From: Solirubrum puertoriconensis
GTDB taxonomy: Bacteria; Bacteroidota; Bacteroidia; Cytophagales; Hymenobacteraceae
NCBI RefSeq assembly: GCF_001483135.1
Contig: NZ_LNAL01000005.1
Location: forward strand, 124,001 to 188,000
DNA: 64,000 nt
Direction of reading: 5' to 3'
In this document: one piece after another, positions 6,723-24,810 of the stretch
Layout of the letters: every line of letters begins with the position of its first letter
Position numbering within the stretch: the first letter of the stretch is position 1
Translations under genes and position numbers: made by a program
The notes under the pieces: model-generated
Database searches by the model: none
Seen by the model: only the letters and a program-made list of their open reading frames with translations
Told to the model about the DNA's origin: nothing

Positions 6723-7484
6723 ATGGTTGACGGCTATCAACCCCTCACTGACTCGCAGTGGCAAGGTATGTCCCGGCTGCTACCGTTGCAACGCAAACGG
6801 CGCCTGTGCTTGCGGCGCGTGGTGGACGCGCTACGCTACGTGTGTCGTTCAGGCTGTCAGTGGCGGTGCCTGCCGGCGGCCTTTCCGAAATGGACCGCTG
6901 TGTATTACTACTTCCGGCGCTGGCATCAGGACGGCACGCTGCAGCACTTGAACCGGGGCCTGAACGAATTGGACCGCCAAGCGCAGGGGCAGGCGGCCAC
7001 GCCGGCGGTGCTGTGCCTGGACAGCCAAAGCGTCAAACTCGCCCCGCGTATTGCCGAGCACCGCGGCACCGACGGCGGCAAGTGCGCGGGCGGGCGCAAG
7101 CGGCAGCTGCTAGTGGACCGGCAAGGCCGGGTGTGGGCCTGCTGCGCGCACGCGGCCAACCAGCACGACAGCCGCGGCGCCGCGCCACTATTGCTGCAGC
7201 GGTGCCAGTGGGGGCCGCGCCTGACCACCGTCGTCACGGACCGCGCCTACCGCGGCCACTTTGCTGAAGGGCTCGTGGCCCGTGGCCTGCGCCACGAGGT
7301 GAGCAGCCGCCCGCCATCGACGCGCGGCTTTGTCCCGGTGGGCTGCCGCTGGGTAGTCGAACGTACCTTCGCGTGGCTCAACTTCTTCCGTCGGCTCGTC
7401 ATGGACTATGAGTATACGCCCGAAAGCCACGCCGCGTGGATCTTGTGGGCCAACGTTACCCTGTGCCTCAATCGGCTACTGTAA
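6723..7484 (+). CDS. IS5-family DDE transposase
   Basis: A 253-residue transposase of the IS5 group (IS427-like). The N-terminal domain reads YQPLTDSQWQGMSRLLP...RRVVDALRYVCRSGCQWRCLPAAFPKW. The DDE residues are visible in CLDSQSVK (first Asp), VVTDRAYRG (second Asp) and RWVVERTFAWLNFFRRL (Glu in the usual E-R spacing). Full length, with no frameshift, so probably active. It begins 83 bp inside the left terminal repeat. Confidence 0.93.
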   Translation: MVDGYQPLTDSQWQGMSRLLPLQRKRRLCLRRVVDALRYVCRSGCQWRCLPAAFPKWTAVYYYFRRWHQDGTLQHLNRGLNELDRQAQGQAATPAVLCLDSQSVKLAPRIAEHRGTDGGKCAGGRKRQLLVDRQGRVWACCAHAANQHDSRGAAPLLLQRCQWGPRLTTVVTDRAYRGHFAEGLVARGLRHEVSSRPPSTRGFVPVGCRWVVERTFAWLNFFRRLVMDYEYTPESHAAWILWANVTLCLNRLL

Positions 7485-8079: not shown

Positions 8080-8845
8080 GAACCTGTTTGGGAATTTAGG
8101 AAAGCGAATCAAGCAGAGCGTGACGTTGTCCCAAAGCGTCCAAGCGGCCCAGCTCTCGAGCGTGTACTCGTAGTTCATGACGAGACGGCGGAAGTAGTCG
8201 AGCCAGATGAAGCCGCGCTCTACCACCCAGCGGCAGCCCGCCGAAACGAAGCCGTTGGCTGAAGGCGGCCGACTACCGATTTCGTGCCGCAGGCCTCGTT
8301 AAAGTGGTCCTTCAGTGAAATGGCCATGTTATGCGTGGAAGGTGGTAATGGTTGTCACGCGCGGGCCCCAGGGTTGACGTTCTAATAGTATGCTTGCTGC
8401 CCCACGACTGTGGTGCTGGTTAGCCGCGTGTGAGCGTCAGGCCCCAATACGCCCATTCTTATCGACAAGCAGCTACCTTTTTCGCCCATTGACACGCATG
8501 TCACCGTCGGTGCCGGGGTCTTCGGTAACACGTGGACCTAGCTTGACGCTTTGACTGTCCAAGCACAGCATGGCCGGGGTGGCTTCTTGAGCGTGAGCTT
8601 GCCTGTCGGCCTCTTTCAGTGCTGGGTTCAGGCGCTGCAGTGTTCAGTCTTGTTGCCAGCGACGAAAGTAGTAGTCTACTTCTGTCCATTTTGGGAAAGC
8701 GTTAGGGAAGCAGCACCTTTGTCAGTCGGTGCGACACACGTAGAGTAAGACGTCAACAATTGCATGTAAGCACTACTACTGGCGCTTACTGTGTACCCGT
8801 AACCTCGCGTGCATTGCTTGCCACTGCGAGTCTGTGAGCTGTTAA
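8080..8845 (-). pseudogene. Decayed IS5-family transposase copy
   Basis: Reading the minus strand recovers, in broken frames, the same protein as the intact transposase upstream: LTDSQWQAM at about 8812-8840, LNPALKEADRQAHAQEATPAMLCLDSQSVKLG in the middle, and SAGCRWWVERGFIWLDYFRRLVMNYEYTLESWAAWTLWDNVTLCL near 8100-8260. Several stops and frameshifts interrupt it. The 3' end keeps a terminal repeat (GAACCTGTTTGGGAATTT at 8080-8097) similar to that of the neighbouring element; the other terminal repeat is not recognisable. It is a remnant and cannot encode a working enzyme. Confidence 0.8.
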
Positions 8846-10194: not shown

Positions 10195-11367
10195 ATGCGC
10201 TTTCAATTCGCCATTATATCCGAGCAAGATATCCTCAATTCCGCGGGTGGAATCGAGATGCTTGACGCTATCAGCTACGACGGTCCCCTCGACCAGTTGG
10301 TTACTGGCCGTCCAGGTTCAGGTAAAACAACTGTTTCGATAATGCGGGCTCGTCGCTTATTTGTAGAAAAAAAGCCTATCTTATTTTTAACCAAACACAA
10401 GCTCTTAGTCTATAGCTTACAGAATGCCTACCCAGGAGTTAATATCTATGGTCTTTATCGTTGGTTTAAAGATAAAACTGGTGATAATTTGTCGGCATAT
10501 CAAAACGGTTCAAAACTGCGGGAGAAGATTACAGATGACAAATATATATATGACGAAGTCTTAGTTGATGAAGGGCAAGATTTACCAGCGTACATTTTCG
10601 AAGCCTTGCCTCACAAGGGCAGACGCTTTTTAGTGGGCGCCGATACAGCTCAACGCATTGTTGAGAACGGTGCGACAGCCGCAGTTATCGAAAGGACCCT
10701 CGAAGAACAAGGAAGAAGTATTAGGCCAGTTGAACTACAATTCAATTATCGAAACTTTGTTGAAGTTTATGATTTTGCACGCCAATTCGTTCCAGAAATG
10801 GATGTCGCTCAGTCCGAAGTCATATTACAGAACACCACTAAAGGTAGGGGCGGGGCTGAGCGGCTACCGCGCATCATTCAAGTGTCCGATAAATTTGCTC
10901 AGTTGAGCAATATTCTTGAAGATAATAATGCTGTAAATATTGCAATAGTCCTTCCTAAGCAATCCGATGTTATAATTTATTACAATGAACTAAGCCATCG
11001 TGGTTTCGAATGCTCAGCTTACTACAATGGTATGCCTTCCCATCAGGAGCAAGCAGTTATGCGCAATATGCAAAGTATATTGATAACTACTTATGTATCA
11101 GTTAAAGGGCTTGAATTTCCTGTTGTTATTATGCCTGAAATGGAGCGTGCTCGATCCGACTCAGACTGGCAGAAAGGAAGCCACTATTACGTTGGCTGCA
11201 CGCGTGCTACAGAACGACTATATTTACTATACCAAGGTAATAATCTTCCCTCCTGTATTGCTGCCTTCCGGAAAGAATCCTATCGGCATCAACTTGTAGC
11301 TGAGACCAAGAATCAACCTCGTCTGCCGCAACCCCAACCGGCAACAACAGAGGACTTACCCTTCTAA
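10195..11367 (+). CDS. SF1 (UvrD/Rep-like) helicase-type ATPase
   Basis: A 390-residue compact superfamily 1 helicase-like protein. Motifs in order: Walker A VTGRPGSGKTT (about residues 36-46), Walker B LVDEGQD (about 122-128), a motif IV-like LQFNYRN, motif V TTYVSVKGLEFPVVI, and motif VI YVGCTRATERLYLLY. It is much shorter than UvrD (about 720 aa), lacking the 1B/2B insert domains; this fits the small helicases found with partner proteins in defence and conflict systems. It is the first gene of a tight cassette: the next start lies 12 bp after its stop. GC is much lower than in the backbone, pointing to transfer. Cytoplasmic; the nucleic acid substrate is unknown. Confidence 0.85.
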   Translation: MRFQFAIISEQDILNSAGGIEMLDAISYDGPLDQLVTGRPGSGKTTVSIMRARRLFVEKKPILFLTKHKLLVYSLQNAYPGVNIYGLYRWFKDKTGDNLSAYQNGSKLREKITDDKYIYDEVLVDEGQDLPAYIFEALPHKGRRFLVGADTAQRIVENGATAAVIERTLEEQGRSIRPVELQFNYRNFVEVYDFARQFVPEMDVAQSEVILQNTTKGRGGAERLPRIIQVSDKFAQLSNILEDNNAVNIAIVLPKQSDVIIYYNELSHRGFECSAYYNGMPSHQEQAVMRNMQSILITTYVSVKGLEFPVVIMPEMERARSDSDWQKGSHYYVGCTRATERLYLLYQGNNLPSCIAAFRKESYRHQLVAETKNQPRLPQPQPATTEDLPF

Positions 11368-11379
11368 CGAACAGCCACA

Positions 11380-13122
11380 ATGGCTAAATACACCAGACGT
11401 CCTGCACTCGCGCCACTCGAATCAGAGTTGTTCCACCTCCAGCAACACGAAGCAGCCTCGACTCCGTCTGCTGGTGACGAACGCGCATCGAAATATACCC
11501 GTTCAAATCAATACGAAAGAAAGACGACACCTAAAAATAAAATTAGGTATAATGTTTTTGATAAAAATAATACGTCTTTATATCTGCAAGTGCATATTGA
11601 AAATATTAGTAAATATCTCAATACAGGCCTGTTCTATCCTGTTAACTGGGAATTTGATTCCGTTTACAAAGAAAACAGAGAAAGTAGGCCTGACTTGCTC
11701 ACTCGCTTTCCTTATGCTCTTCCCTTATCTCCTGGCATTGTTAACAATTTCAGAGATTATGAGGTCTTAATTGAGTTAGCCTTAGTCGAAAATGAGAAAA
11801 ATTCACTTGAGCCCGTTGATGAAATTTTTTTATATCATGATGCCTTACCAGTATCTCGTATCCGTCAAATTATTTTCTCTAGAATAGAGGTAGCAAAAAA
11901 GTATATTGCTACTAGGGAGATTTATGATGATTTCTTCTTCCCTGATAGGTTAGTGTCTGTGCAATATGAGAACCTAGTGAAGGTTAGTTTATCTGGCAAG
12001 AGAGAGGAAAAAGGTGGAATATTTAATCACAATAATTATACTTTATTTATTGAAAAGTTTAATCAATATGATAGGATCTTAGGAATGTTAGCATTTATGA
12101 AAAACACTTCTCTTCTGCGAGCCAACCATACCGGATACTTAACGGATTGGGACGTTAGATTTACTTCTACCTTGGCTTTGATTAACGATGTTGGTCAAAC
12201 CAGTTCGGTTGGTATTAACTCTATAACAAAACTGTTTTTATCTAAGGATCCTGAGATAGTTAATCCTGCTCATACTGCACGGCAATACTTGTTAACTGAA
12301 ATAATCAAACATATTTATGCTGGTGGTACATTTAGTTACAGTTGGGCACGTAGTAAGATTGCTGCTATAAGTGAGTTAGTCACAGTTGCGGAGATATTTG
12401 AATTATTAGAGCAAGAAGGTGAAATGAATTACAGAAGGGCCATTGAGTTTATACGCTCATCAGCTCCTGTATCTCGTCCTGATTACAACTTGCCAATAAT
12501 ACTATTGATCTTGTTATGTAAGTTCAATAACAAGGCTCGAACTCACACAGATAAGCAAGCAGTTAGGATATATTTTAGTTCAGAGTTAAATGTTAGTGAA
12601 AATGAAATTGCTGCGTCAGCAGCTATTTTAGGGCTATACTATGGATATCAAAACTTAATTCGAGATGATAAAAATATTGATTTGAAAGATGTTGTTTTTG
12701 GAGCTGTTTCAATTCATATAAATAGGATAAAGCTTCAGCTAGAAAGGTTTTTGGATCGTTTCGTGGCAGAGAGCGTATTTCAATACACATTTAATGATAA
12801 AAAGACTTTGCCTAACGATTTCAAGTATTTGAGGACGAAGCACGACTATATTCCAAGATATCCTAATGTTCCTGTTGGTTATATCGATAATAAATATTCA
12901 GTACTAGCTGATCCAATAATCAGTGTATCTATTTCCCATTGGACGCCCTTTGTCAAATCATTGCCGCCGTCGGTACCCTTAGCTCATCCGGTGATACAAA
13001 TGTTGTCAATAATGGGTTTATCCATACCTAAAGAACTTATAGCTTCCCTATTAGATGCAATACCAAAAGAAAAACAAGAGCACGCGTTAAAATTACTAAA
13101 TGCTCCGGTTAACAAATTTTAA
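11380..13122 (+). CDS. Unknown 580-residue protein of the helicase-AlkB cassette
   Basis: I do not recognise this protein. The first 50 residues are polar and probably disordered (many Arg, Lys, Thr). A folded part begins with LYLQVHIENISKYLNTGLFYPV, which loosely recalls the opening of DarT/DUF4433-like domains (HI.N....L..GL), but I see too little further support to assign it. The rest is mixed alpha/beta then mostly helical, without signal peptide or membrane segments, and shows no nuclease, kinase or ATPase motif by eye. Very AT-rich coding sequence. It lies 12 bp after the helicase and only 3 bp before the methyltransferase gene, so it is almost certainly co-expressed and may be the effector or the target-recognition subunit (inference). 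Confidence 0.75.
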   Translation: MAKYTRRPALAPLESELFHLQQHEAASTPSAGDERASKYTRSNQYERKTTPKNKIRYNVFDKNNTSLYLQVHIENISKYLNTGLFYPVNWEFDSVYKENRESRPDLLTRFPYALPLSPGIVNNFRDYEVLIELALVENEKNSLEPVDEIFLYHDALPVSRIRQIIFSRIEVAKKYIATREIYDDFFFPDRLVSVQYENLVKVSLSGKREEKGGIFNHNNYTLFIEKFNQYDRILGMLAFMKNTSLLRANHTGYLTDWDVRFTSTLALINDVGQTSSVGINSITKLFLSKDPEIVNPAHTARQYLLTEIIKHIYAGGTFSYSWARSKIAAISELVTVAEIFELLEQEGEMNYRRAIEFIRSSAPVSRPDYNLPIILLILLCKFNNKARTHTDKQAVRIYFSSELNVSENEIAASAAILGLYYGYQNLIRDDKNIDLKDVVFGAVSIHINRIKLQLERFLDRFVAESVFQYTFNDKKTLPNDFKYLRTKHDYIPRYPNVPVGYIDNKYSVLADPIISVSISHWTPFVKSLPPSVPLAHPVIQMLSIMGLSIPKELIASLLDAIPKEKQEHALKLLNAPVNKF

Positions 13123-13125
13123 ATC

Positions 13126-14640
13126 ATGGATTTACTTGCATTGCAAGAACTCTTGTCATCTGCCTCTTCGCTGGTAGAACTAGATGAGTTGGTAGAAGAA
13201 TACGAATCGAAAATCATTCTTGCTTTACTCAATGCAGAAGTAACAACTCCAGAAGGGCTAAAATTGTTGGAAGCTACATATGGTGCATTCACAACTTCAG
13301 GTGCAGGTAGGTATTGGCTAAGGAACAACACGGTATCCAATGGTGTAGGTTTGCTGTTGCAAATGTTCGCCTTAGCCTATGAAAAAAGCAACGCTTATGC
13401 GAAAATTCGCACTATCGCGGCGCACCTTCCCCCTTCGTCCGTTCAAATCAGACTTAAAGCCTTATCAAAGATTTATACAGAAATTGGATTTGATAAAAAA
13501 GATTACCTCAATTACTTCGGAATTATCCTTGACTTGCTTTCATCAGCTCAATATGATGAGAATGAACCAGACGCTGACTATACTGGGTATGTTTTGCGGA
13601 TACTGCATATTTATAAAAGTAGAGGTGAAGAATCTTTGTCTACTATATCTAGCTACTTGTTAGAGTTTCAACAACTGTTTACGCACGAAACAAATATTGA
13701 AAAGTGGCCCTTACTTAAAAGGTATTCACCTCCAAGCGGCGGTATATTAGATATTACTCATGGATTTGATAGTGCACAAGCTGAGCCACAGCCATTGTCA
13801 CCCAGTGTTGTGTTCGAGTCACTATTCGATTCAAAAGTGTCTCAATTGCTACGTAAAGATTCAAGAACACCTGGAGGAAATCTAAGTAGTCCCTTGGGTC
13901 TTACCTCTAGCTATGCAAGACAGTATCTTCTTGAATTTGGGACAGCCGACTTTCGAAAATCATTCAGTGAATATTCTCCTGCCGATCGTGTGTTGATTTA
14001 TTGTCATTTCAACATGCGTAAGCACTATTTTACAACTTACTATATATATTCAGTTTTTGTGAGTAAACTAGCTCCGTTAATATATGAAAATAACAAATTA
14101 GTATTTCTAGATTTAGGATGTGGCCCTTTAACTTCTGGTTTGGCAATTGCTGATCTATTTGTGAATAGGTTTGGTAAACCTATTCCAATGCAGTATATTG
14201 GAGTCGATATTGCGCCTGCAATGCTTGATAAAGCGAGGGATTTCGCTACCGATAGCACATTGTTCTCAGCAAGTGAATTTTTTTTCCTTGTTGATTTCCA
14301 AGAGGTGCTGTCACTAATAACCGAGAGAATAGTGCGGAGCAACGAGGCAATCCTCATCAATGCTTCCTATCTCTTCGCCAGTTCATCCTTAATTGTAGAT
14401 GATCTAGCAGCGTTCGTTATTCAATTGCATACTAGATGCCCGACCTCCCCGATTTACTTCGTTTATCAAAACCCTGTTCACGAAGATAAGAATGCGAAGT
14501 ACCAGGAGTGGAAAACGCACTTGCCAGGTCTCAAAGTTGTTCATCATGCAAAGGAGCCCGTACAATACAGAACCAGAAGGTTTGGCGGCACTTCTGAACC
14601 TGAAACGGTACGATATGAACTTCTCACCTATGGAAGCTAG
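13126..14640 (+). CDS. Helical domain plus class I SAM-dependent methyltransferase
   Basis: A 504-residue protein. The first 300 residues are predicted helical and unrecognised (starts DLLALQELLSSASSLVELDELVEEYESK). The C-terminal part is a Rossmann methyltransferase: motif I LVFLDLGCGPLTSG (about residue 326 on), acidic motif II YIGVDIAPAMLDKARDF, and a later ILINASYLFASSS strand region. There is no DPPY or NPPF motif, so it is not an obvious adenine or cytosine N4 DNA methyltransferase, and no PC motif for a C5 enzyme; RNA, protein or small-molecule substrates are possible. Gaps to neighbours are 3 bp upstream and 4 bp downstream, so it belongs to one operon with the helicase and the AlkB-like gene. 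Confidence 0.8.
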   Translation: MDLLALQELLSSASSLVELDELVEEYESKIILALLNAEVTTPEGLKLLEATYGAFTTSGAGRYWLRNNTVSNGVGLLLQMFALAYEKSNAYAKIRTIAAHLPPSSVQIRLKALSKIYTEIGFDKKDYLNYFGIILDLLSSAQYDENEPDADYTGYVLRILHIYKSRGEESLSTISSYLLEFQQLFTHETNIEKWPLLKRYSPPSGGILDITHGFDSAQAEPQPLSPSVVFESLFDSKVSQLLRKDSRTPGGNLSSPLGLTSSYARQYLLEFGTADFRKSFSEYSPADRVLIYCHFNMRKHYFTTYYIYSVFVSKLAPLIYENNKLVFLDLGCGPLTSGLAIADLFVNRFGKPIPMQYIGVDIAPAMLDKARDFATDSTLFSASEFFFLVDFQEVLSLITERIVRSNEAILINASYLFASSSLIVDDLAAFVIQLHTRCPTSPIYFVYQNPVHEDKNAKYQEWKTHLPGLKVVHHAKEPVQYRTRRFGGTSEPETVRYELLTYGS

Positions 14641-14644
14641 TTTG

Positions 14645-15244
14645 ATGTCCCCTTCGCTCGTCCACGAATCGGACGAGCCACTGAGCACCGAACTGCCTCA
14701 AGGGGCACGGTATATGGCGGACTATTTGACTGTAAAGGAAGAACTTAAACTCCTTTCGTTGATTGACGCAGCTCCATGGCTCAATGACCTGAAACGGCGT
14801 GTTCAGCACTATGGCTACCGCTACGATTACCGTAGCCGCAACATCGACTATTCCATGTTCTTGGGCCCCTTGCCAGCATGGGCAGCCTATTTTGCTGTTG
14901 AGCTCTGCAAAGATGGACTAATGCCCACAATTGCTGATCAAGTAATTGTTAACGAATACTTGCCTGGCCAAGGCATTGCGCCGCACATCGACTGTACTCC
15001 GTGCTTCGAGGACGCTATTGTGTCAATCAGCTTAGGTTCCAGCTGCATTATGAACCTCATTAACGCTGCTGGCACTGAGCAAATTGACGTACCGTTAGCA
15101 CCCAGGAGCGTCATTTCATTGACGGAAGATTCCAGATACAAGTGGAAGCATGGAATCAAATCAGTGAAGAGTGACCTGATTGATAATGTCCGAGTGGAAC
15201 GTGGCAGACGAGTTTCTCTTACTTTCCGCAAGGTCAAACTTTAG
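14645..15244 (+). CDS. AlkB-like 2-oxoglutarate/Fe(II) dioxygenase
   Basis: About 199 residues from the ATG at 14645, chosen because a GGAAG element lies 8 bp before it and the previous gene stops at 14640; in-frame ATGs at 14630 and 14615 are alternatives that would overlap the methyltransferase gene. The fold signature is AlkB: GARYMADYLTVKEELKLLSLID, NEYLPGQGIAPHIDCTPCFED (HxD iron ligands, about residue 116), a distal His in YKWKHGI, and the 2-oxoglutarate-binding arginines in RGRRVSLTFRKV. AlkB enzymes oxidatively remove methyl groups from nucleic acid bases. Its position as the last gene after a methyltransferase suggests paired writing and erasing of a mark, or repair of self damage (inference). 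Confidence 0.85.
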   Translation: MSPSLVHESDEPLSTELPQGARYMADYLTVKEELKLLSLIDAAPWLNDLKRRVQHYGYRYDYRSRNIDYSMFLGPLPAWAAYFAVELCKDGLMPTIADQVIVNEYLPGQGIAPHIDCTPCFEDAIVSISLGSSCIMNLINAAGTEQIDVPLAPRSVISLTEDSRYKWKHGIKSVKSDLIDNVRVERGRRVSLTFRKVKL

Positions 15245-15329: not shown

Positions 15330-16562
15330 ACCTGACATAATTTCTTCCAACGAGTTGAAAGTGCCGGACTGCTTCACGCTCCTTTCGTCGTCATAGCACC
15401 GGCAGCTTGCTTGCGTCGCGGCTGTATGGCGGCAAAACTCACAGTACCTAACTGTGCAGTTTATTAAGCGCATCGATTTCGGCCAGAAAGCTCGACCCGC
15501 CGTACAGCAAGCGCTGCGTTGGTAAAAATGCTCAGCTGTTGTCCCTATAGCTCCTAGACGCCTAATAGAACGCCCGCTTTCATTTACTCGGTGCCCAGCT
15601 GACACAGCCGATACAGTGCGGCCCGACCATAACGTAATAGCTCGCTGGTAGCGGGTGGTAGAGTGAGTACCGTCGAGTGCGTGTGGGGGGGTGGATACGA
15701 ACTGATTCGGTTCTGGCTGAACACCTTGAGCAAGTGTGCGGCCGAGTGCCGCCGCAGATTCTCAGCTGCACGTTGAGAAAACGCGCCCACAGCTCAAAGC
15801 ACGTCCTAGTACTCTGTTAGTGGCTGCTCAAAGGTGCGAGTGCAAGCAATATTCTGCCGGATCAATGAGCCATCTTCGCTTGCCGCTAGTTCGTAGCACG
15901 CATACACCTTCAGCTCGCACACGAGACGTACGCCCACCACGCCTCCCATACACTGGCCAACTGTGCGGCCGTACGTATCTGGTGTGTGGAGCTTCTGGGC
16001 ATAGCGGTAGCCAATGCTCCACACGTCCCTTTATGGCGACCTGCTCCAGGGCCCAGCGTCTCGCTACCTTGTCTGGTCAGTAAAGCATGCCGCTTAACAC
16101 TGACTGCTTCTTCGCTACGCGGTTGATCAGCTTGGCTAGGGCCTTAAACGGAACCACGCCTACGTGGGATGGAATGTGCGTGGGCTGCCGCACCAGCTGT
16201 GCGTAAACACCCAAATCGCCGTGCCACTGCACCATACCTTCTCACCCAAGTAATGCCTCGTCAATGGAGCAGAATTCCAGCTCAGGCGCCAGTTGGGCGA
16301 GTTGCCCCATCACGCGGCGTGCCAAATCGCCACAGAGGCTATAGTTCGAGGAAAGTACTCATATCAGGTGGCGGCGCAGCAGGTCTTTAACATGGAAGTA
16401 TGGTTACCCCATCTTCAGCATTAAGGCTTTTGCTTCGGCCGAGCGAGAAATGATGCACCCTTCGTTGTTGCTGAGTACCACGACGGGTAAATCTTCCAAA
16501 GCCGGGTTAATAGCCTGATCGCAAGAAACGCAGAAGTTATTGCAGTCTACGAGCGCGAACAT
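15330..16562 (-). pseudogene. umuC: Decayed umuC (DNA polymerase V catalytic subunit)
   Basis: Translating the minus strand from the ATG at 16560-16562 gives MFALVDCNNF and SNNEGCIISRSAEAKALMLKMG followed by a stop; further down come VPFKALAKLINRVAKKQ, a GIGRQYA-like SIGYRYAQKLH with RTFEQPLTEY, ENLRRHSAAHLLKVF and finally SPALSTRW-like sequence near 15340. This is the full order of UmuC (Y-family polymerase, about 420 aa), but the reading frame is broken by several stops and frameshifts. The total length (about 1.23 kb) is close to an intact gene, so decay is by point changes and small indels, not by deletion. I see no umuD partner upstream. Confidence 0.8.
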
Positions 16563-16815
16563 GCTCGTGAAGCTTTCCATTCAAGGGCGCGAAGGCCGTC
16601 AAGTGGCAGGGGGGCCGTGGTATCAGGCCACAGCAGGCTCCAATGGATAAGGGTCATAAACCCCCAAGCTATGGCAATCCATGGCTGGTAGGTATTCCCC
16701 TTTCTATTTAGCTGTCCGGCAGCAAAAAAATAGCGATACCCTAGAGATGCTGCGCCAGGAATGCCACCTTTACTGTTCAATGCCGTCCCCAAAGGACTTA
16801 CTTGTCTTAGCTTAC

Positions 16816-17208
16816 ATGAAACACCACGAGGTGGTCGCTGCCGTCATTCAGAACGGCGATCAAATTCTTTGCCTGCAGCGCGGGCCCAGCAAGTACCATT
16901 ACATCGCCCACAAGTGGGAGTTTCCAGGGGGTAAAGTTGAGCCCGGCGAAACCCAAGAGCAGGCAATCATCCGGGAAATTCACGAAGAATTGGGTTTGCA
17001 GGTTGACGTACGCGCTGCTTTTTTAACCGTCGAGCACGAATACCCCGACTTTAAAATTACCATGCACAGCTTGTTATGTACCCCCGCCGGCGGAGAGCTC
17101 GTGCTTACCGAACACGTGGGCTATCAATGGCTACCCGCCTCAGGCTTGCTTAGCTTGGACTGGGCTGCCGCTGACCTGCCCATAGTTGATAAGCTGATGG
17201 CCCAGTAA
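16816..17208 (+). CDS. Nudix (MutT-like) nucleoside triphosphate pyrophosphohydrolase
   Basis: A 130-residue Nudix hydrolase that cleaves (d)NTPs to monophosphate and pyrophosphate. The Nudix box is complete: GGKVEPGETQEQAIIREI with EELGL following, after the usual ILCLQRGPSKYHYIAHKWEFPGG strand. I start at 16816 (MKHHEVVAAVI), where family similarity begins; the longer frame from 16681 adds unrelated sequence. The helicase gene starts 11 bp after its stop, so the two are co-transcribed. Nudix genes of this type are often adjacent to DUF3427 helicases. Role in the cassette unknown; sanitising or depleting a nucleotide signal are possibilities. Confidence 0.88.
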   Translation: MKHHEVVAAVIQNGDQILCLQRGPSKYHYIAHKWEFPGGKVEPGETQEQAIIREIHEELGLQVDVRAAFLTVEHEYPDFKITMHSLLCTPAGGELVLTEHVGYQWLPASGLLSLDWAAADLPIVDKLMAQ

Positions 17209-17219
17209 GCGGGATTGGA

Positions 17220-20117
17220 ATGACAGCTGTTCTTTCCGGGGAATTATTGGCCGGTCTGCAACGGGGCTTTATGGATGCGGGGCTGCCAGCCTCCGAAGCG
17301 TTCCTGCCCCAGCTTTTGATAAACCACCAGGCCCACGGCAAGACGGTGCTCGCGGCTTTGCACAAGCACTTAGCTGAGTGCGAGGAGTTCTGGTTTTCGG
17401 TGGCCTTTGCTACTAAAGGCGGAGTGGCAACCCTACTGCACCTGCTGCAAGAACTCGAGCGCCGCCGAATCAAGGGCCGGGTGTTGGTCTCGCAGTACCA
17501 GAATTTCACCCAGCCGGAGGCGCTGCGCGCGCTGTTGCAGTTTAGCAACCTCGAGCTGCGCATCGCCACCCAGGGCAACTTCCACGCGAAAGGGTACTTG
17601 TTTAAAAAGCGCGGCACTTATGATGTCTGTATTGGCAGCAGCAACCTCACCGATAGCGCCCTTAGGTCTAATAAAGAATGGAACCTGCAAGTCTCGGCTA
17701 CGCCCGCCAGTGAGCTCTTGCAAACGGTACTGGCTACATTCGAGGACGAATTTACCCAAGCGGTTCCCGTCACCGAGGACTTCTTAACGGCTTACGAGCA
17801 GATCTATCACGCGCAGTTCAAACTCGCCGCTCGTTTAAGGGCTCAGGTGAGTTTAGAAACTACGGCTGCGGTGAAACCTAACGCTATGCAGCGCGAGGCG
17901 CTGCACAACCTCGCGGCGCTACGAGTGAAGGGAGAACAGCGAGCCTTGTTGATCTCCGCGACGGCGACTGGCAAAACGTACCTGTCGGCTTTTGATGCGC
18001 AAGCGTGCGGGGCTAAACGCGTGTTGTTTGTGGTACACCGCAATAACATCGCCCAAACGGCCAGACGCACGTTTCAGCAAGTGTTTGGGCATAGCCGGAG
18101 CACGGGTATGTACTCGGGTAATCGGCGCGAGGCAGAAGCGGACTTTGTGTTTAGCACAGTCCAAACAGTAGCGCAGGAAAACCACTTGCGTCAGTTTGCC
18201 CCGAACCACTTCGACTATATCGTCATCGACGAAACGCACCGCTCAGGAGCGGAGTCCTACCGACGCTTGCTCGACTATTTTCGCCCTAAGTTTTTGCTCG
18301 GGATGACAGCCACTCCTGAGCGTACGGATGGCTACGACGTATTTCAGCATTTCGACCACAACATAGCCTACGAGATTCGCTTGCAGCGGGCTTTGGCGGA
18401 GGACATGCTCGCTCCCTTCCACTACTTTGGCGTTACGGACGTGACAGTGGATGGGGAAGTGGTAAACGAGGCCGCTGCTTTCAATCAACTCGTGGCGGTG
18501 GAGCGCGTGGAGCACATCTTAACAAAGGCTCGATTCTACGGCTGCGACGATGGCCAAGTGCGAGGGCTGGTGTTTTGCCGGAACGTGGAAGAAAGCCGCG
18601 CTATCTCGGCCGCTTTCAACGCCCGGGGCTTGCGCAGCGTAGCGCTAGACGGTAGCAGCAGCGAAACCCTACGTGCAGAGGCGATCTCACGCCTTGAAAG
18701 CGACGTCTTGGCGGAGCGCATTGACTACATTTTCACGGTCGACATCTTCAACGAAGGCATCGACATACCGCGGGTTAACCAGGTGATCATGCTGCGGCCC
18801 ACCCAGTCCGCCATTGTCTTCGTGCAGCAGTTGGGCAGGGGGTTGCGCAAGGCTGAAGGCAAAGAACACCTCACAGTTATTGATTTCATCGGCAACTACC
18901 AAAACAACTACTTGGTGCCAATCGCCCTATTTGGGGACACCACTTACAACAAGGACACGTTGCGCAAGCTCATGGTGGGTGGTAGCAGCATGCTGCCGGG
19001 TGCCTCTACTATCAATTTCGACCAAATCGCTCAACAACGCATTTTCGCAGCTATTGATCGGGCAACCTTGGATGGTAAGAAAGAGCTGGTGCAGGACTAC
19101 AAGCTGCTCAGGTTTAAGCTAGGCCGCATTCCCACCATGGTGGACTTTCTCGAGCACGGTGCCCGAGATCCTTTCATGTATGTCACGAGAGCGGGCTCGT
19201 ACTTTAACTTTGTGGCGGGACTCGAGCCGAGTATGCAGGGGCAGTTAAGCCCCACGGAATGCCGTCTGCTTGAGCTGATTTCCACATTTATTGCGAATGC
19301 CAAGCGCATCGAAGAAGTGCTCCTGCTTGAGTTACTACTGCCGGGCAACCCGGTAAAGCTAGAGGACCTCAACTTAGCCTTATCCCTGCAGTTTAATCGG
19401 CAAGCCAGCGTAGCCACGCTAACTTCTTGCCTGCGCAACCTCAATTTCGCCTTTATCCGGCAAACCACGCCCGTTGTGGAAGAAGCGGATGGGGTTATTT
19501 CGCTGGTCCCCTCGTTTGCCGCCATGGTTTCCAAAGCCATTTTCGGGGAGTACTTGCGCGATGTGCTCGCTTTTGCGCGCGCCCGCTACTCGGGCTACGC
19601 CGCGCAAAGCCCTTATGTTGACGGCTTTTTTCTCTACCAGAAATATTCGCGTCAGGACGTATGCCGCATCCTAAACTGGGACCAGGACGAAAGCTCCACC
19701 GTGTATGGGTACAAAGTAAAACACGGCTCCTGTCCCATTTTCGTGAACTACCACAAGGAGGAGGACATCACGGACAGTACCAAATACGAGGAGGGCTTCG
19801 CGGATCACCGGGAGTTTCACTGGATGTCCAAGTCCAACCGCAAACTGACCAGTCCGGAGATTGTCGCGATGCAAAACCACGCTGCGACGAACTTGCGCCT
19901 GCCTTTATTCATCAAGAAGAGCAACGGCGAGGGCGCCGATTTCTACTACATGGGCGAGGTGAGCCCTGTCTCCTTTGAGCAAAGTTCATTGGCCAAAGGC
20001 AACGGTGAGACCGTTCCAGTAGTCAAAGTTGTGTTTTACTTGGCACAGCCAGTGGCCGACGCGATGTTCACGTATCTGACCTCATCCGAGCATAGCTTAG
20101 GCCTAGCGAATGCTTAA
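17220..20117 (+). CDS. PLD-domain SF2 helicase with DUF3427
   Basis: A 965-residue three-part protein. The N-terminal domain is phospholipase D-like with HxK in GNFHAKGYLF (about residues 119-128) and IGSSNLTDSAL after it, as in PLD nucleases. The middle is a superfamily 2 helicase: ATATGKTYLS (Walker A, about 247), VIDETHRSGA (DExH, about 336), GMTATPER, and QLGRGLRKAEG (motif VI, about 536). The C-terminal domain from about residue 780 matches DUF3427 (YGYKVKHGSCPIFVNYHK...YEEGFADHREFHWMSKSN). Proteins of this architecture are known from many bacteria and are commonly considered DNA-processing or defence enzymes. It sits between the Nudix and HNH genes with 11 bp gaps on both sides. Confidence 0.9.
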   Translation: MTAVLSGELLAGLQRGFMDAGLPASEAFLPQLLINHQAHGKTVLAALHKHLAECEEFWFSVAFATKGGVATLLHLLQELERRRIKGRVLVSQYQNFTQPEALRALLQFSNLELRIATQGNFHAKGYLFKKRGTYDVCIGSSNLTDSALRSNKEWNLQVSATPASELLQTVLATFEDEFTQAVPVTEDFLTAYEQIYHAQFKLAARLRAQVSLETTAAVKPNAMQREALHNLAALRVKGEQRALLISATATGKTYLSAFDAQACGAKRVLFVVHRNNIAQTARRTFQQVFGHSRSTGMYSGNRREAEADFVFSTVQTVAQENHLRQFAPNHFDYIVIDETHRSGAESYRRLLDYFRPKFLLGMTATPERTDGYDVFQHFDHNIAYEIRLQRALAEDMLAPFHYFGVTDVTVDGEVVNEAAAFNQLVAVERVEHILTKARFYGCDDGQVRGLVFCRNVEESRAISAAFNARGLRSVALDGSSSETLRAEAISRLESDVLAERIDYIFTVDIFNEGIDIPRVNQVIMLRPTQSAIVFVQQLGRGLRKAEGKEHLTVIDFIGNYQNNYLVPIALFGDTTYNKDTLRKLMVGGSSMLPGASTINFDQIAQQRIFAAIDRATLDGKKELVQDYKLLRFKLGRIPTMVDFLEHGARDPFMYVTRAGSYFNFVAGLEPSMQGQLSPTECRLLELISTFIANAKRIEEVLLLELLLPGNPVKLEDLNLALSLQFNRQASVATLTSCLRNLNFAFIRQTTPVVEEADGVISLVPSFAAMVSKAIFGEYLRDVLAFARARYSGYAAQSPYVDGFFLYQKYSRQDVCRILNWDQDESSTVYGYKVKHGSCPIFVNYHKEEDITDSTKYEEGFADHREFHWMSKSNRKLTSPEIVAMQNHAATNLRLPLFIKKSNGEGADFYYMGEVSPVSFEQSSLAKGNGETVPVVKVVFYLAQPVADAMFTYLTSSEHSLGLANA

Positions 20118-20128
20118 TTCGGCAACGT

Positions 20129-21301
20129 ATGGTGTTTGATACTACCGACGGGGAGCGCGCCATCGCCACCATACTGAAGCACGACAACAAAACCACGAGT
20201 TATAAGATTGCCTTACTGCGGGCCATCAACGACTTGGTGTTGGCTTACCCAGATTTAAGCGCGGTACCCCACGGCGTAGCGATACCCTTACGGCGTATTG
20301 CCGAGCTGTGGATAGCGTATTATTGGCCCTTTACCGATGAAATTCAGCCCATCTACCAAGGTGCGCGTTCAGAACGGCAGGGCGTTATTCGCAACGACCT
20401 AAGCTTTAGGCCAGCCCTGAACCGGTTGCGGGCCGAGTGGCAGAAAGTCATTAAGCTCAGCGTGCTCCCTTCCGATGGGTTTTTCCTGGTCTCGGATATG
20501 CGCACCCCGCGCCGGCGTGCGACTTATGATCCTACCCTGCAAAAAGCCTACGACGCGGCAGTTACTAGCATCGCCACTGCGGTACAGATGCCTATTCGGT
20601 ATGCTGGTCCCGAGCAATGGAGCGTCTTTGCCAAACCTGCTCGCCTCTTTAGCCTGCCTGCTTCTGTCACCCCTTTGCCCGGCACGGCCTCCCAGGAGGT
20701 TTGCGTGGTGGTGGCGGCGAATCTGTGGGCAGGGTTTCACCGCTTGTCTCTCTACATTGAAGCCTTGAGCATTCACGAGTGGTGTCTGTTCACCGAAGGC
20801 GTAGCGCAAAGGGATGAATACTCGCCTTCCCGCGGCGATATCTATAGCTTGCTGACGGCTCGCCCAGATAACCGACGTCCCTTAAGCTGGGAGCGTAATG
20901 AAGTCGACATTCTCTTGCATGAACAGGTGCCGTTTACCTGTCCCTGGACGCGCAAGCCGATTCGCACCTCCCGGGATTACGATTTAGATCATCTGCTGCC
21001 CTTAGCTGTGTACCCGGTAAATGAGCTGTGGAATCTGTTGCCAGTAGATAAGGAGTTCAATCAGCATCTCAAACGCGACCGCGTGCCGTCCAGCCAACGC
21101 CTCCAGGAAGCTGTTCCCTGGCTTGCATCCGCCTACCACAACTATCAACAATCCGCCAAGTTAGGTCGCGCGGTACAAGAAGATGCGGCCTTGCGGTTTA
21201 CCGCAGTCGGAGCAAATTCAAGCTTTGCCGTAGATCTAGCGTACCGTGCTGTAAATTTTATCGATCGGGTGGCAGTAGCACGGTACGTGCAGCGTTTTTA
21301 A
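20129..21301 (+). CDS. HNH endonuclease-domain protein
   Basis: A 390-residue protein with an unrecognised N-terminal two thirds and a C-terminal HNH nuclease motif at about residues 265-315: EQVPFTCPWTRKPI, then YDLDHLLPLAVYPVNELWNLLPVD and FNQHLKRDRVPS. The DH pair, the Asn of the N-x-W-N-L-L segment and the final His form the expected metal site; the first CxxC half is reduced to one Cys. The early segment ELWIAYYWPFTDEIQPIYQGA is typical of HNH proteins encoded beside DUF3427 helicases. It is the last gene of the Nudix-helicase-HNH operon and is convergent with the DUF2075 gene. Probable role: DNA cleavage in a defence cassette (inference). Confidence 0.82.
   Translation: MVFDTTDGERAIATILKHDNKTTSYKIALLRAINDLVLAYPDLSAVPHGVAIPLRRIAELWIAYYWPFTDEIQPIYQGARSERQGVIRNDLSFRPALNRLRAEWQKVIKLSVLPSDGFFLVSDMRTPRRRATYDPTLQKAYDAAVTSIATAVQMPIRYAGPEQWSVFAKPARLFSLPASVTPLPGTASQEVCVVVAANLWAGFHRLSLYIEALSIHEWCLFTEGVAQRDEYSPSRGDIYSLLTARPDNRRPLSWERNEVDILLHEQVPFTCPWTRKPIRTSRDYDLDHLLPLAVYPVNELWNLLPVDKEFNQHLKRDRVPSSQRLQEAVPWLASAYHNYQQSAKLGRAVQEDAALRFTAVGANSSFAVDLAYRAVNFIDRVAVARYVQRF
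21241..21297 (+). terminator. Possible intrinsic terminator overlapping the end of the HNH gene
   Basis: GTACCGTGCT (21241-21250) is complemented exactly by AGCACGGTAC (21277-21286), with a 26 nt loop, followed after ten bases by a run of five T at the stop codon. The long loop makes it weak. It would end the Nudix-helicase-HNH transcript before the convergent gene. Confidence 0.3.
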
Positions 21302-21626: not shown

Positions 21627-23534
21627 TTATACCGCTACCATCAGATTCTGTGCTTTTTCCTGAGCCGAGACCAGGGCGAGTTGGCTTCTGAAATACTCCT
21701 CGGTCTCCTGGTCAGTGAAGTACACGTAGCATCCCAGCATACCGCGCGTCATAAGCGTGCGATAGGTATTCTTGATGATGCTGTCAAGTTGAACAGCCGT
21801 TTCCTCAGGGCGCAGTTGGCTTAGTTGTTTATAGCCTTTCACGGTCATATCGGATTTCGCGCGCTTACTGGCATCGGTAACCACTTGCCCGTTTCGCACC
21901 ACCAAGTCGGGACCGACGATTACCCCTACATAGTCCACTTCCAGGCCTTGGCAGGTATGGATGCAGCCGATTTCCCGTACCGAATCCGGGTTCATGATCC
22001 ACAGGCCGCCGTCTTGCGTCAAGTTCCAGCGGATGGCGAAGTCATGCTCGGGCAGCACCACGTCGTACACACCCTCCAACACTTTTTTCTTGTTGGGCCA
22101 GGTCCAGCAATAGCCCGCCACGAGGCGGGCCTTGTTGCGTTCCCGGTTTTTGGCTTCGATGATATCCCGCAGCTCATGCGGACTGCTGACCACTTGAAAC
22201 TCAAACCCCAAAGTCTCCGGCTGGTACGCTTCCGTATTCGGAATCTGCAGTACCTGGTCCAACCAATTCAGATAAGCCACCGAGCCGTTGCAGCGAAATT
22301 GGGAGGCCAGCTGTAGCTCGTGCACTTCCGCACCTTCCGCTTTTGCCCACGCTTTGATTTCTTCCCGGCTGCCAATATCCTTTAAGTGGACGCGCTGTTT
22401 TTCGTCAATGAAGAAGACGGTAACCCTTGCAGCGTGGATGAGTTCCTTGATTTGGTTTTCCCCAAGGTTGCCGTACAAGCCCGACTTCTCGTTTAGCCGG
22501 TGGCTTTCGTCGACAATCAAGGACTCGAAAGTGTTCGCTTCCGTATTGGTAAAGGCCCCTGAACCCACAAACAAGTTGGAGATCCGACCTTTGGTTAGCG
22601 AGCCGCTGAGCTTGTTGGAATAAACGTCTCGGGGGGCGGCATTTTTGGTGACGTATTGGACCGGTTTCTGCTGGTTGGTTATCGCCACCAGCAGGTTGAT
22701 CGCTACTACCGATTTTCCGGTGCCAGGCCCCCCTTCAACAATCAGGACCTTCTTGCCCCCATTGGGGTTTGAGTTAATAAGTTGCAGGGCTGTTTCGTGA
22801 ACCACCTTCTGGTCGTCCACCAACACAAATTCGCGGTTGCCGCCCAGCATGGCGACGAGGCTATCCGCCAAGCTCTTGCTGGGCCGCAGCTTTCCCGCGT
22901 CAATGCGTTCCATTATGCCCGTCGCATCCCCGCGCTGGATGCGCTCCTTGATATAGGCTCGGAACTTCAGCGCATCACCTTGGAAGAAAATGGGCGCTAA
23001 TGCCACGTGGTGGGCGTACGCCTCGCCGGCAAGCACCTCATCTTGGGCATAGTTATGTAAGTAGGCGCAGGGGTGCAGTTCAATATTTTCTTCTTGAACC
23101 GTCAAATTGAAATCCTGCAAAAGGGCGGCGTAAGACCAAGCTTGGTACGAAGGGTGGGTAACCTCGCGCTGGCTACCGTTTAAAAAAGTGCGCACCACGG
23201 CGTCTTTGCCCGTTGCCGATGCCTGTTGCCATTGCTTCAACTCCACAATGATGACTTGGTCCACGCCAGCCGAGTTTTGGCCGGTCAATACAAAGTCGAT
23301 CAACTTACCGGAATGCGGCAATTTGTACTCGATGCATACCCCGCAGTCGTTCGGGATTTCAGCGTCCTGCAAGAGCAAGGCCATGGCCTGTAGCGAGTGC
23401 TTCCACGCCGCCACCTGAGATTTTCCAGCACCATGTTTTAGCTTCTCCTGAACTAGCCCCAGGACAATTTCATCGATGGCGTTGGTAAGAATATCCTCGA
23501 GGAATTGGGATTTGCTTTTGTGATAAACAATCAT
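21627..23534 (-). CDS. PD-(D/E)XK nuclease-like plus DUF2075 SF1 helicase
   Basis: A 635-residue protein. The N-terminal about 200 residues resemble a PD-(D/E)XK nuclease: CIEYKLPHSGKLIDFVLTG with IIVELKQW (Asp and E-x-K). The rest is a DUF2075 helicase/ATPase: VEGGPGTGKSVVAINLL (Walker A), LIVDESHRLN (Walker B), FFIDEKQRV, LASQFRCNGS, IHTCQGLEVDYVGVIVGPDL and TLMTRGMLGCYVYF (motifs V and VI). DUF2075 proteins are frequent in defence islands and are related to the helicase half of some Schlafen-like proteins. It is encoded 2 bp after a MazG-like gene and is convergent with the Nudix-helicase-HNH operon. Cytoplasmic; probable role in nucleic acid processing or defence. Confidence 0.87.
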   Translation of the reverse strand: MIVYHKSKSQFLEDILTNAIDEIVLGLVQEKLKHGAGKSQVAAWKHSLQAMALLLQDAEIPNDCGVCIEYKLPHSGKLIDFVLTGQNSAGVDQVIIVELKQWQQASATGKDAVVRTFLNGSQREVTHPSYQAWSYAALLQDFNLTVQEENIELHPCAYLHNYAQDEVLAGEAYAHHVALAPIFFQGDALKFRAYIKERIQRGDATGIMERIDAGKLRPSKSLADSLVAMLGGNREFVLVDDQKVVHETALQLINSNPNGGKKVLIVEGGPGTGKSVVAINLLVAITNQQKPVQYVTKNAAPRDVYSNKLSGSLTKGRISNLFVGSGAFTNTEANTFESLIVDESHRLNEKSGLYGNLGENQIKELIHAARVTVFFIDEKQRVHLKDIGSREEIKAWAKAEGAEVHELQLASQFRCNGSVAYLNWLDQVLQIPNTEAYQPETLGFEFQVVSSPHELRDIIEAKNRERNKARLVAGYCWTWPNKKKVLEGVYDVVLPEHDFAIRWNLTQDGGLWIMNPDSVREIGCIHTCQGLEVDYVGVIVGPDLVVRNGQVVTDASKRAKSDMTVKGYKQLSQLRPEETAVQLDSIIKNTYRTLMTRGMLGCYVYFTDQETEEYFRSQLALVSAQEKAQNLMVAV

Positions 23535-23536
23535 AG

Positions 23537-23869
23537 TTATAGCTCGTCGTATTTGGTGGCCGTGCCTTTGGCTTTGCTAATGGGGTATTTTTCGGCGTTG
23601 CGGGCGATCTTTTCTTGCATGAGCTGCTCGATATCCCAGCCGTATTTGTCGGCGAGTTGCACGGCGTAGAGCAGCACATCGGCCAGCTCTTCCCGCACTT
23701 TGTTCGGGTTAGCGGCCTCGGGTAACTTCCACAAAAATTGCTCGTTGAGCTCGGCAGCTTCAATGCTTAGGGCCAAGGCGAGGTCCTTGGGATTGTGAAA
23801 TTGGGCCCAATCTCGCTCGTCGCGAAATTGCCGTAGTTGTTGCAGGATGTGTTCTAAACCGGAGCTCAT
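23537..23869 (-). CDS. MazG-like nucleotide pyrophosphohydrolase
   Basis: A 110-residue all-alpha NTP pyrophosphohydrolase of the MazG-like (RS21-C6/iMazG) type. The metal-binding motif is complete: LALALSIEAAELNEQFLW (E-x-x-E) and REELADVLLYAVQLADKYGWD (E-x-x-D). These enzymes hydrolyse (d)NTPs, in some cases modified nucleotides. It is the first gene of a two-gene operon with the DUF2075 nuclease-helicase, 2 bp apart. This pairing is common in my knowledge of bacterial genomes, so the two probably act in one pathway. Confidence 0.88.
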   Translation of the reverse strand: MSSGLEHILQQLRQFRDERDWAQFHNPKDLALALSIEAAELNEQFLWKLPEAANPNKVREELADVLLYAVQLADKYGWDIEQLMQEKIARNAEKYPISKAKGTATKYDEL

Positions 23870-24768: not shown

Positions 24769-24810
24769 GTAGCATCCGCAGCTTAGCAGACCTCAATTTC
24801 CGCTTCCGCG

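What the first reader, a model, noticed from the sequence alone, without database searches (positions are those of the whole stretch)
10195..15244. Candidate undescribed four-gene system: SF1 helicase, unknown protein, methyltransferase, AlkB dioxygenase
Four genes on one strand are separated by 12, 3 and 4 bp, are strikingly AT-rich against the GC-rich genome, and sit in a region with other defence-type genes. The domains I can see are a minimal SF1 helicase (Walker A/B, motifs V, VI intact), an unassigned 580 aa protein, a class I methyltransferase with an unassigned helical N-terminal domain, and an AlkB-like Fe/2-oxoglutarate dioxygenase. A methyl-adding and a methyl-removing enzyme with a helicase in one operon does not match any defence system I know by name.
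Basis: partly seen in the sequence, partly recalled or inferred. Interest (0 to 1): 0.82.

Follow-up and report, generated by a model that had tools for sequence, protein, structure and literature searches.

The report
Helicase, ADP-ribosyltransferase, methylase, AlkB defence operon
Four bacterial genes that travel together as one unit, probably against viruses or plasmids, pair a helicase and an ADP-ribosyltransferase-type protein with a methyl-adding enzyme and an AlkB-type enzyme, and the last two also turn up attached to other defence machinery.

Summary
In detail: four intact ORFs at 10195-15244, gaps 12, 3 and 4 bp, AT-rich. The "unassigned" 580 aa protein is a Pfam 2CompART protein (ADP-ribosyltransferase fold), whose helical half matches Pfam 2CompARG in 16 of 27 aligned homologues. 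The cassette is not chance: helicase and ART adjacent in 29 of 29 non-redundant ART loci, with methyltransferase domain and a fourth gene in 26 of 29, all Bacteroidota. It is missing from 7 of 7 same-genus genomes and lies in a defence island. (1) The methyltransferase domain plus fourth gene is a portable pair, also fused to a DNA2-like nuclease-helicase, beside a reverse transcriptase, and beside type III-B CRISPR. (2) The fourth slot holds ALKBH8-like AlkB, ALKBH3-like AlkB, or DUF1848, switching even between close relatives. Best reading: a mobile anti-invader operon, helicase-ART effector plus a nucleobase methyl-write / oxidative-erase pair. Defence role likely; ART catalysis and write-erase chemistry are inferred. 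The domains are known; no description of the operon turned up in ten paper searches, but one likely source could not be read.

The parts
10195..11367 (+). Minimal SF1 (UvrD/HelD/GajB-like) helicase, 390 aa, without NERD domain
   Evidence: Viral_helicase1, UvrD_C above cut-off; PADLOC C3a187 NERD+UvrD 6e-17, GajB 4e-13, RTasNERD-Hel 1e-12; family profile to PDB: HelD, UvrD, GajB. Walker A, DExQD and motif VI in 29 of 29 helicases, window included.
11380..13122 (+). ART-fold protein, 580 aa: low-confidence N-terminus (1-60), 2CompART domain (67-194), helical ADP-ribose-glycohydrolase-like region (about 217-475)
   Evidence: PF22546 E 2.1e-15; of 27 aligned proteins (window included) 27 match PF22546, 16 match PF22545 2CompARG (the window protein does not at E 0.1), 4 match SAP; AlphaFold2 model, mean pLDDT 73.6; Foldseek top DarT and Tpt1, then ARH3, best E 0.015 (none at 0.001).
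13126..14640 (+). Class I SAM methyltransferase, 504 aa: helical N-terminal domain (MTN, about 1-222) and methyltransferase domain (MTC, about 224-504)
   Evidence: searches (Methyltransf_31/25, below curated cut-off; PADLOC C3a159 1.3e-16), model mean pLDDT 87.3 (pTM 0.59), Foldseek (172 PDB matches at E<=0.001; the 50 listed are mostly SAM methyltransferases), (MTN matched only in helicase-ART loci; MTC in all contexts).
14645..15244 (+). AlkB-family Fe(II)/2-oxoglutarate dioxygenase, ALKBH8-like, 199 aa
   Evidence: PF13532 4.5e-19 (scanned with the longer start); PDB ALKBH8 3thp E 1.2e-26, next 3.9e-10; H114, D116, H169, R189.

Best explanation
A horizontally moving anti-invader operon of Bacteroidota. 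SHOWN: gene content, synteny, co-inheritance, accessory distribution, exchange of parts. INFERRED: (1) the SF1 helicase engages and opens invader nucleic acid, most likely DNA; (2) the ART-fold protein, held to it, is the effector and acts on that strand in the manner of DarT (or on RNA in the manner of Tpt1), its glycohydrolase-like half acting as brake or ADP-ribose reader; (3) the methyltransferase, docked to the same complex through its helical N-terminal domain, methylates nucleobases on the exposed strand; (4) the fourth enzyme (AlkB, or DUF1848 in its place) undoes that methylation on host nucleic acid, so MT and gene 4 are a writer-eraser pair that other defence effectors also borrow. 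My confidence by step: identity of components 0.9 (ART catalysis itself 0.6), defence role 0.75, MT and gene 4 acting on one substrate in sequence 0.7, write-erase of a nucleobase methyl as stated 0.35.
For: Synteny: helicase next to ART in 29 of 29 ART loci, with MTC and gene 4 in 26 of 29 (16 of the 29 were found through the MT and so are biased); among the 13 genomes that are the window's or were found through the ART: 13 of 13 and 10 of 13. Distance matrices co-vary (24 loci, 0 of 2000 permutations for each pair). Gene 4 is in the same cluster as MTC in 40 of 43 loci whatever the effector (this sample is mostly MT-found), and both are missing in L016 and L017. Slot filled by ALKBH8-like, ALKBH3-like (L013 E 5e-42) or DUF1848; L039 and L050 are 69/76/62% identical in nuclease/helicase/MTC regions yet carry AlkB versus DUF1848, as expected for enzymes doing one job on one MT product. 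The alternative effector of the same pair is a PD-(D/E)XK + DNA2-like helicase, pointing to DNA. Defence setting: window island; PglZ and BrxL beside L018, BrxL beside L017, DrmA and DrmB beside L016; type III-B CRISPR and a reverse transcriptase beside the pair. Precedent (recalled): ALKBH3 works with the ASCC3 helicase on single strands.
Against: No function was measured anywhere. ART chemistry is unsure: the candidate catalytic Glu (E132) is E in only 20 of 27, the Arg of the NR motif varies, D105 and P157 are the invariant residues; profile comparison with DarT is not significant. The glycohydrolase-like half does not show the DDTDT motif of canonical members and does not align significantly with them, so an ADP-ribose 'eraser' is doubtful. 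The window's AlkB resembles ALKBH8, which (recalled) hydroxylates a tRNA wobble base and does not demethylate. AlkBs of this family (36-38% identical) also occur without MT, helicase or ART neighbours: 3 of the 4 related genomes whose AlkB surroundings I fetched (L098-L100; the fourth, L097, has an MTC fragment). At the place where I put MT motif IV it reads NASYLF, not a DNA-MTase motif such as NPPY (recalled), and its target is unknown. No convincing phage or viral carrier.
Confidence: 0.4

Rival explanations
1. Sequential hypermodification: the MT and the ALKBH8-like enzyme build one modified nucleobase (for example at tRNA position 34, as Trm9/ALKBH8 do in eukaryotes), which protects host RNA or DNA from the system's own effector, or is what the effector reads.
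For: The window AlkB's nearest solved relative is ALKBH8 by 16 orders of magnitude. Faint CmoA (tRNA cmo5U34) similarity of MTs: L013's MT to TIGR00740 at E 7e-5 and the MT profile to CmoA chains at E 0.4-0.6. In two cyanobacterial plasmids the pair follows an AAA_33 P-loop protein with KTI12 matches (E 1.1e-9 and 2.5e-6). Elongator's Elp3 is a radical SAM enzyme, as DUF1848 may be (roles of Elp3, KTI12, Trm9 recalled).
Against: L013 and L014 carry an ALKBH3-like enzyme (L013), a demethylase type (recalled); CmoA and KTI12 matches are weak or generic and the window's own MT shows no CmoA match; DUF1848 has no sequence match to a solved radical SAM protein.
Confidence: 0.25
2. Restriction-modification logic: MT (with AlkB) marks host DNA, helicase-ART attacks unmarked DNA.
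For: MT, helicase and effector in one operon; MT fused to a nuclease-helicase in the alternative system.
Against: L016 has helicase and ART without MTC, and no other methyltransferase appeared in 8 of its 10 neighbouring ORFs scanned (6 with Pfam, 2 with PADLOC only). L017 likewise in 4 neighbours scanned, but its MT is truncated and may be a broken copy. AlkB has no place in ordinary R-M.
Confidence: 0.12
3. DarTG-like toxin-antitoxin module: ART toxin restrained by its own glycohydrolase-like half, activated on infection; MT and AlkB are add-ons such as repair of collateral damage.
For: 2CompART plus 2CompARG in one protein in 16 of 27; DarT top Foldseek match, weak; MTC and AlkB absent in L016 and L017.
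Against: Helicase present in 29 of 29; glycohydrolase active-site motif not seen; MTC and gene 4 present in 26 of 29 and co-varying with the ART, so hardly optional.
Confidence: 0.15
4. Ordinary nucleic-acid repair operon unrelated to conflict.
For: AlkB and helicase are repair-type proteins; DUF1848 looks to me (recalled, untested) like spore-photoproduct-lyase-type enzymes.
Against: Patchy: PF22546 in 8 of 204 genomes of the family including the window's, 0 of 7 others of the genus; AT-rich, in an island with an integrase and defence genes; fast ART divergence (median identity 21%).
Confidence: 0.07

Closest known systems
Pfam 2CompART (PF22546) / 2CompARG (PF22545)
   Same: 27 of 27 aligned ART proteins match 2CompART, 16 of 27 also 2CompARG
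   Different: These are domain names only; their source paper was not read here, so I cannot say whether its authors listed the helicase, MT and AlkB neighbours. The window protein itself does not reach 2CompARG.
DarT / DarTG
   Same: Among the nearest solved ART folds by Foldseek, weakly (E 0.015 and up); possible nucleic-acid target
   Different: No Pfam DarT match, profile comparison not significant; no macro-domain partner among the four proteins; works with a helicase, MT and dioxygenase
Gabija (GajB) and NERD-UvrD helicases of PADLOC (C3a187, RTasNERD-Hel)
   Same: Helicase core
   Different: No GajA among the four proteins, no NERD domain; different partners
PADLOC C3a159 methyltransferase and RTasDUF1848 (accessories of type III CRISPR and of defence reverse transcriptases; the first expansion is my reading, DRT is PADLOC's own label)
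   Same: MTC and DUF1848 match them; cyanobacterial loci show the pair beside Cmr genes and beside an RT
   Different: Here the pair belongs to a helicase-ART operon
ALKBH8 / ALKBH3
   Same: Two of the gene 4 types
   Different: ALKBH8 fuses AlkB to a Trm9-like methyltransferase (recalled); here the MT is separate and not clearly Trm9-like
DNA2 (nuclease-helicase)
   Same: Alternative effector fused to the same MTC has a PD-(D/E)XK-type region and a Upf1/DNA2-like helicase
   Different: Extra N-terminal region and MTC at the C-terminus; not in the window

Membership tests
2CompART (PF22546) | Sequence match above curated cut-off | tested here: met
   57.4 bits against cut-off 27; 27 of 27 aligned proteins match at E 0.1 or better
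2CompARG (PF22545) | Sequence match | tested here: inconclusive
   16 of 27 aligned proteins match, the window protein does not at E 0.1; Foldseek lists ARH3 at E 0.12 and 0.17
Active ADP-ribosylglycohydrolase | Metal-binding DDTDT-type motif | tested here: inconclusive
   Not seen in A7 when set beside canonical A10, but the two profiles do not align significantly
Active ADP-ribosyltransferase | Conserved catalytic glutamate and NAD-binding residues | tested here: inconclusive
   E132 in 20 of 27; D105 and P157 in 27 of 27; R160 in 24 of 27; which residues are catalytic is my assignment
DarT | DarT profile match or significant profile-profile match | tested here: not met
   No DarT match; hhalign E 0.091 and 0.14
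Gabija | GajA nuclease together with GajB | tested here: not met
   No GajA hit among the four proteins or the ten further window proteins scanned
SF1 helicase | Walker A, Walker B, motifs V and VI | tested here: met
   Walker A, DExQD and motif VI in 29 of 29
AlkB dioxygenase | HxD...H iron ligands and Arg for 2-oxoglutarate | tested here: met
   Window H114, D116, H169, R189; pattern in 37 of 38 AlkB proteins, the other (L054) has HxD and a later H but a different residue after it
Restriction-modification | Modification enzyme always accompanies the effector | tested here: inconclusive
   L016 lacks MTC and no other methyltransferase was found in 8 of 10 neighbouring ORFs; one clear case only
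Anti-phage defence system | Reduces phage or plasmid success | not testable with these tools
   Only context: island and patchy distribution
ALKBH8-type tRNA wobble modification | Acts on tRNA position 34 | not testable with these tools
   Sequence nearness only
Radical SAM (for DUF1848 in the fourth slot) | CxxxCxxC cluster motif | tested here: met
   4 of 4 members aligned have CxxxCxxC near the C-terminus; no PDB match, so the fold is unproven

The most novel reading that the evidence does not exclude
The methyltransferase domain with its AlkB/DUF1848 partner is a portable 'nucleobase write-and-erase' module of prokaryotic immunity: lesion-type methylation is used as a weapon (or toggle) on invader nucleic acid, the oxidative or radical enzyme is the antidote, and the module is plugged into unrelated effectors (helicase-ART, DNA2-like nuclease-helicase, defence reverse transcriptase, type III CRISPR).
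Probability: 0.28. Interest if true: 0.88.

Novelty: new variant of a known kind. Interest (0 to 1): 0.64.

Why it matters
It would add base alkylation and its direct reversal to the chemistry of bacterial immunity, give a role to bacterial ALKBH8-like AlkBs and to DUF1848, and explain why different defence loci (type III CRISPR, a defence-type RT) carry the same orphan methyltransferase. If AlkB and DUF1848 truly replace each other, the shared substrate becomes directly testable.

Tried and rejected
Single-protein scan of genome contigs with the ART found nothing: the family is too divergent. My first reading of the 1438-1485 aa ORFs as helicase-ART-MT fusions was wrong: no ART signal above noise; they carry a PD-(D/E)XK-type region, a DNA2-like helicase and MTC. 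hhalign of the ART against DarT and against canonical glycohydrolases: not significant. ART against plasmids and phages: no match. AlkB and the short MT (L059) against phages: none. MT against plasmids: 3 Picosynechococcus records; DUF1848 against plasmids: 2 records, one (Parabacteroides) not looked at further. MT in viral contigs: one weak contig, L064, in which my profiles then matched nothing. Rfam over 6.5-34 kb: none. The VIA structure comparison was not available.

Literature: ten searches listed no paper that I could tie to this operon; I judged most from listings. Passages only were read, by term search, in PMC9503650, PMC7159879, PMC8195603, PMC10853773, PMC12839542, PMC4012209 and PMC7824862; no paper was read whole. 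The paper I recall as the possible source of the 2CompART name (Burroughs and Aravind, J Bacteriol 2020) is not held, so an earlier description cannot be excluded.

Rows dropped before the counts: L027, L033, L037, L031 and L067, as the same contigs or genome as L019, L015, L020, L065 and L066. L036 and L038, and L048 and L051, look near-identical but are kept as different species. L038 was left out of the 24 loci.
Full report
WHAT IS THERE. Four intact ORFs on the plus strand at 10195-11367, 11380-13122, 13126-14640 and 14645-15244 are separated by 12, 3 and 4 bp. GC is 35-44% there against 59-67% in 1-6 kb and 38-60 kb. The window is contig C5 124001-188000 of a 4.8 Mb genome. Two same-family genomes have contigs of the same lengths as Hymenobacter ruricola (L027) and Rufibacter glacialis (L033) records, so the host is a Hymenobacteraceae bacterium by inference. 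The operon sits in an island: a type IV restriction enzyme (17220-20117) with an HNH gene, a Schlafen-group-3 helicase, a PD-(D/E)XK protein and a phage-type integrase follow within 20 kb.

THE FOUR PROTEINS. (1) Helicase: UvrD/HelD/GajB-like SF1, without the NERD domain of its nearest PADLOC models. (2) The 580 aa protein is a Pfam 2CompART protein (57.4 bits, cut-off 27). Of 27 aligned proteins, window included, 27 match that family, 16 also match 2CompARG, an ADP-ribose glycohydrolase-like domain (the window protein does not), and 4 match SAP. An AlphaFold2 model from 27 sequences (mean pLDDT 73.6) gives DarT and Tpt1 as top Foldseek matches and ARH3 next, all weak (best E 0.015, none at 0.001). 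Active-site conservation is mixed: D105 and P157 in 27 of 27, R160 in 24, E132 in 20. Profile comparisons with DarT and with canonical glycohydrolases are not significant. I therefore call it an ART-fold protein whose transferase activity is likely but unproven, and whose glycohydrolase-like half may be inactive. (3) The methyltransferase has two parts: a helical N-terminal domain (MTN), matched only in helicase-ART loci, and a class I SAM domain (MTC) shared with all other contexts (model; fold matches). (4) AlkB: nearest solved structure ALKBH8 (E 1.2e-26), next 3.9e-10; iron and 2-oxoglutarate residues present.

CONSERVATION. ART-first sampling: PF22546 in 8 of 204 genomes of the family including the window's, and in 0 of 7 others of the genus; in 4 of 395 across the phylum including the window's; an ART alignment in 4 of 395 of the class including the window's and one already seen. 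That gives 13 genomes: helicase next to ART in 13 of 13; MTC and a fourth gene in 10 of 13. L016 and L017 lack both (L017 keeps MTN); L021 has DUF1848 upstream but its contig ends inside the ART. MT-first sampling of the 84,980 species genomes gave 37 loci. Merged and made non-redundant: 29 ART loci, helicase adjacent in 29, helicase + MTC + gene 4 in 26 (25 AlkB, 1 DUF1848). Of the 25, 20 have helicase-ART-MT-AlkB on one strand in that order, two have AlkB just upstream on the same strand and three have it upstream on the other strand. Distances of the four proteins co-vary over 24 loci (Mantel r 0.95 helicase-ART, 0.91 helicase-MT, 0.91 ART-MT, 0.80 MT-AlkB, 0.64 helicase-AlkB, 0.59 ART-AlkB; 0 of 2000 permutations each). 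The lower AlkB values fit its exchangeability. All ART loci found are Bacteroidota; other phyla could not be sampled for the ART (one search failed).

THE MT-AlkB PAIR IS PORTABLE. Gene 4 lies in the same cluster as MTC in 40 of 43 MTC loci (38 AlkB, 2 DUF1848; exceptions L056, L062 at a contig end, and the weak L063). Contexts besides helicase-ART: MTC fused to a PD-(D/E)XK-type region and a DNA2-like helicase in 8 proteins of 1438-1485 aa, seven followed by AlkB and one by DUF1848. The nuclease pattern GRLD...ELKSG...NHxxQ...Y is visible in the alignment of all 8; strict patterns caught GRLD in 8, the ELKSG spacing in 6 and NHxxQxxxY in 7 of 8; Pfam named the nuclease in one of the two proteins scanned (L050, E 1.3e-4). 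Further: three Picosynechococcus plasmids with an AAA_33/WYL-type protein (Pfam for two, annotation for the third) plus MT plus AlkB, one beside a reverse transcriptase and two beside a type III-B CRISPR locus; MT-AlkB without these partners in a Poribacteria MAG (L059). PADLOC's entries C3a159 and RTasDUF1848 match MTC and DUF1848. Going the other way, from AlkB: 6 of 58 relatives have this AlkB including the window's; of the four others whose surroundings I fetched, one (L097) has an MTC fragment next to it and three (36-38% identical AlkB) have no MT, helicase or ART nearby. So this AlkB family also exists outside the pair.

THE FOURTH SLOT IS EXCHANGEABLE. ALKBH8-like AlkB in most; ALKBH3-like AlkB upstream of the helicase in L013 and L014 (L013: E 5e-42 to ALKBH3; both alike); DUF1848 in L021, L022 and L050, with CxxxCxxC in 4 of 4 DUF1848 members compared. 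L039 and L050 are 69, 76 and 62% identical over nuclease, helicase and MTC regions, yet one has AlkB and the other DUF1848. The simplest reading is that both act on the MT's product. A Planktothrix plasmid carries DUF1848 and an AlkB one gene apart on opposite strands.

MECHANISM. The two alternative effectors (helicase-ART; nuclease-helicase) look made for nucleic acid, probably DNA. The MT-gene 4 pair is absent together in L016 and L017 and is not tied to one effector. The ALKBH3-like variant favours removal of a base methyl; the ALKBH8-like majority allows hydroxylation instead (substrates recalled). I commit to write-erase at 0.35, with hypermodification as the main rival at 0.25. R-M logic is weakened by L016 having helicase and ART but no methyltransferase in 8 of 10 neighbouring ORFs scanned; L017's MT is cut short just after MTN and may be a broken copy, so it counts less.

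AGAINST THE READING. Nothing functional was tested; ART residues vary; no convincing phage carriers were seen; the MT's target class is unknown; the KTI12 and CmoA hints towards tRNA are weak. Whether the operon is already in print is open: ten paper searches found none that I could tie to it (listed in Tried and rejected), but the Pfam names show that someone has looked at the ART protein, and the paper I recall as possible source is not held.

Noticed in passing
window 27732-32582 (+), integrase 32800-33771 (-): Three overlapping AT-rich genes (931 aa leucine-rich-repeat protein, then 411 and 276 aa proteins without Pfam or PADLOC match at E 0.001) next to a phage-type integrase: a possible further uncharacterised system.
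   Followed up: no
window 16681-21301 (+): Nudix protein (PADLOC PDC-S07), type IV methyl-directed restriction enzyme with PLD, helicase and DUF3427 domains, and an HNH protein in a row.
   Followed up: partly
window 21627-25965 (-): Schlafen-group-3 helicase protein (635 aa) and PD-(D/E)XK protein of PADLOC PDC-S26.
   Followed up: partly
window 16122-16550 (-): Decayed Y-family DNA polymerase gene with three stops inside, about 0.9 kb downstream of the cassette.
   Followed up: partly
window 6822-7183 and 8396-8757: Inverted pair, 70% complementary over 362 nt, one arm inside ORF 6723-7484, which reads to me like a transposase (not searched); then about 2.2 kb without long ORFs before the helicase, no Rfam match.
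   Followed up: partly
window 35546-35638 (-): ARAGORN calls a tRNA-Ala inside the long ORF 34670-37357; may be spurious or an integration target.
   Followed up: no
L039, L040, L041, L046, L048, L049, L050, L051: PD-(D/E)XK-type region + DNA2-like helicase + methyltransferase in one protein of 1438-1485 aa, followed by AlkB or DUF1848: looks like an unnamed defence system.
   Followed up: partly
[not shown]
   Followed up: partly
L068 5738-9405, L069 3732-9414, L096 4738-8405: Cyanobacterial plasmids with AAA_33/WYL-type protein + MT + AlkB beside type III-B CRISPR or a reverse transcriptase.
   Followed up: partly
L028 9082-10393, L029 186-1500, L097 5830-8212: N-terminally shortened MT plus full-length AlkB; in L097 an integrase/transposase-like ORF lies just upstream (my reading): probable remnants of such cassettes.
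   Followed up: no
L059 661-2680: Poribacterial MT-AlkB pair preceded by a HicB-like antitoxin gene.
   Followed up: no
L066 and L067: One genome (G691) has the same cassette on two contigs with identical match scores: a true duplicate or an assembly artefact.
   Followed up: no
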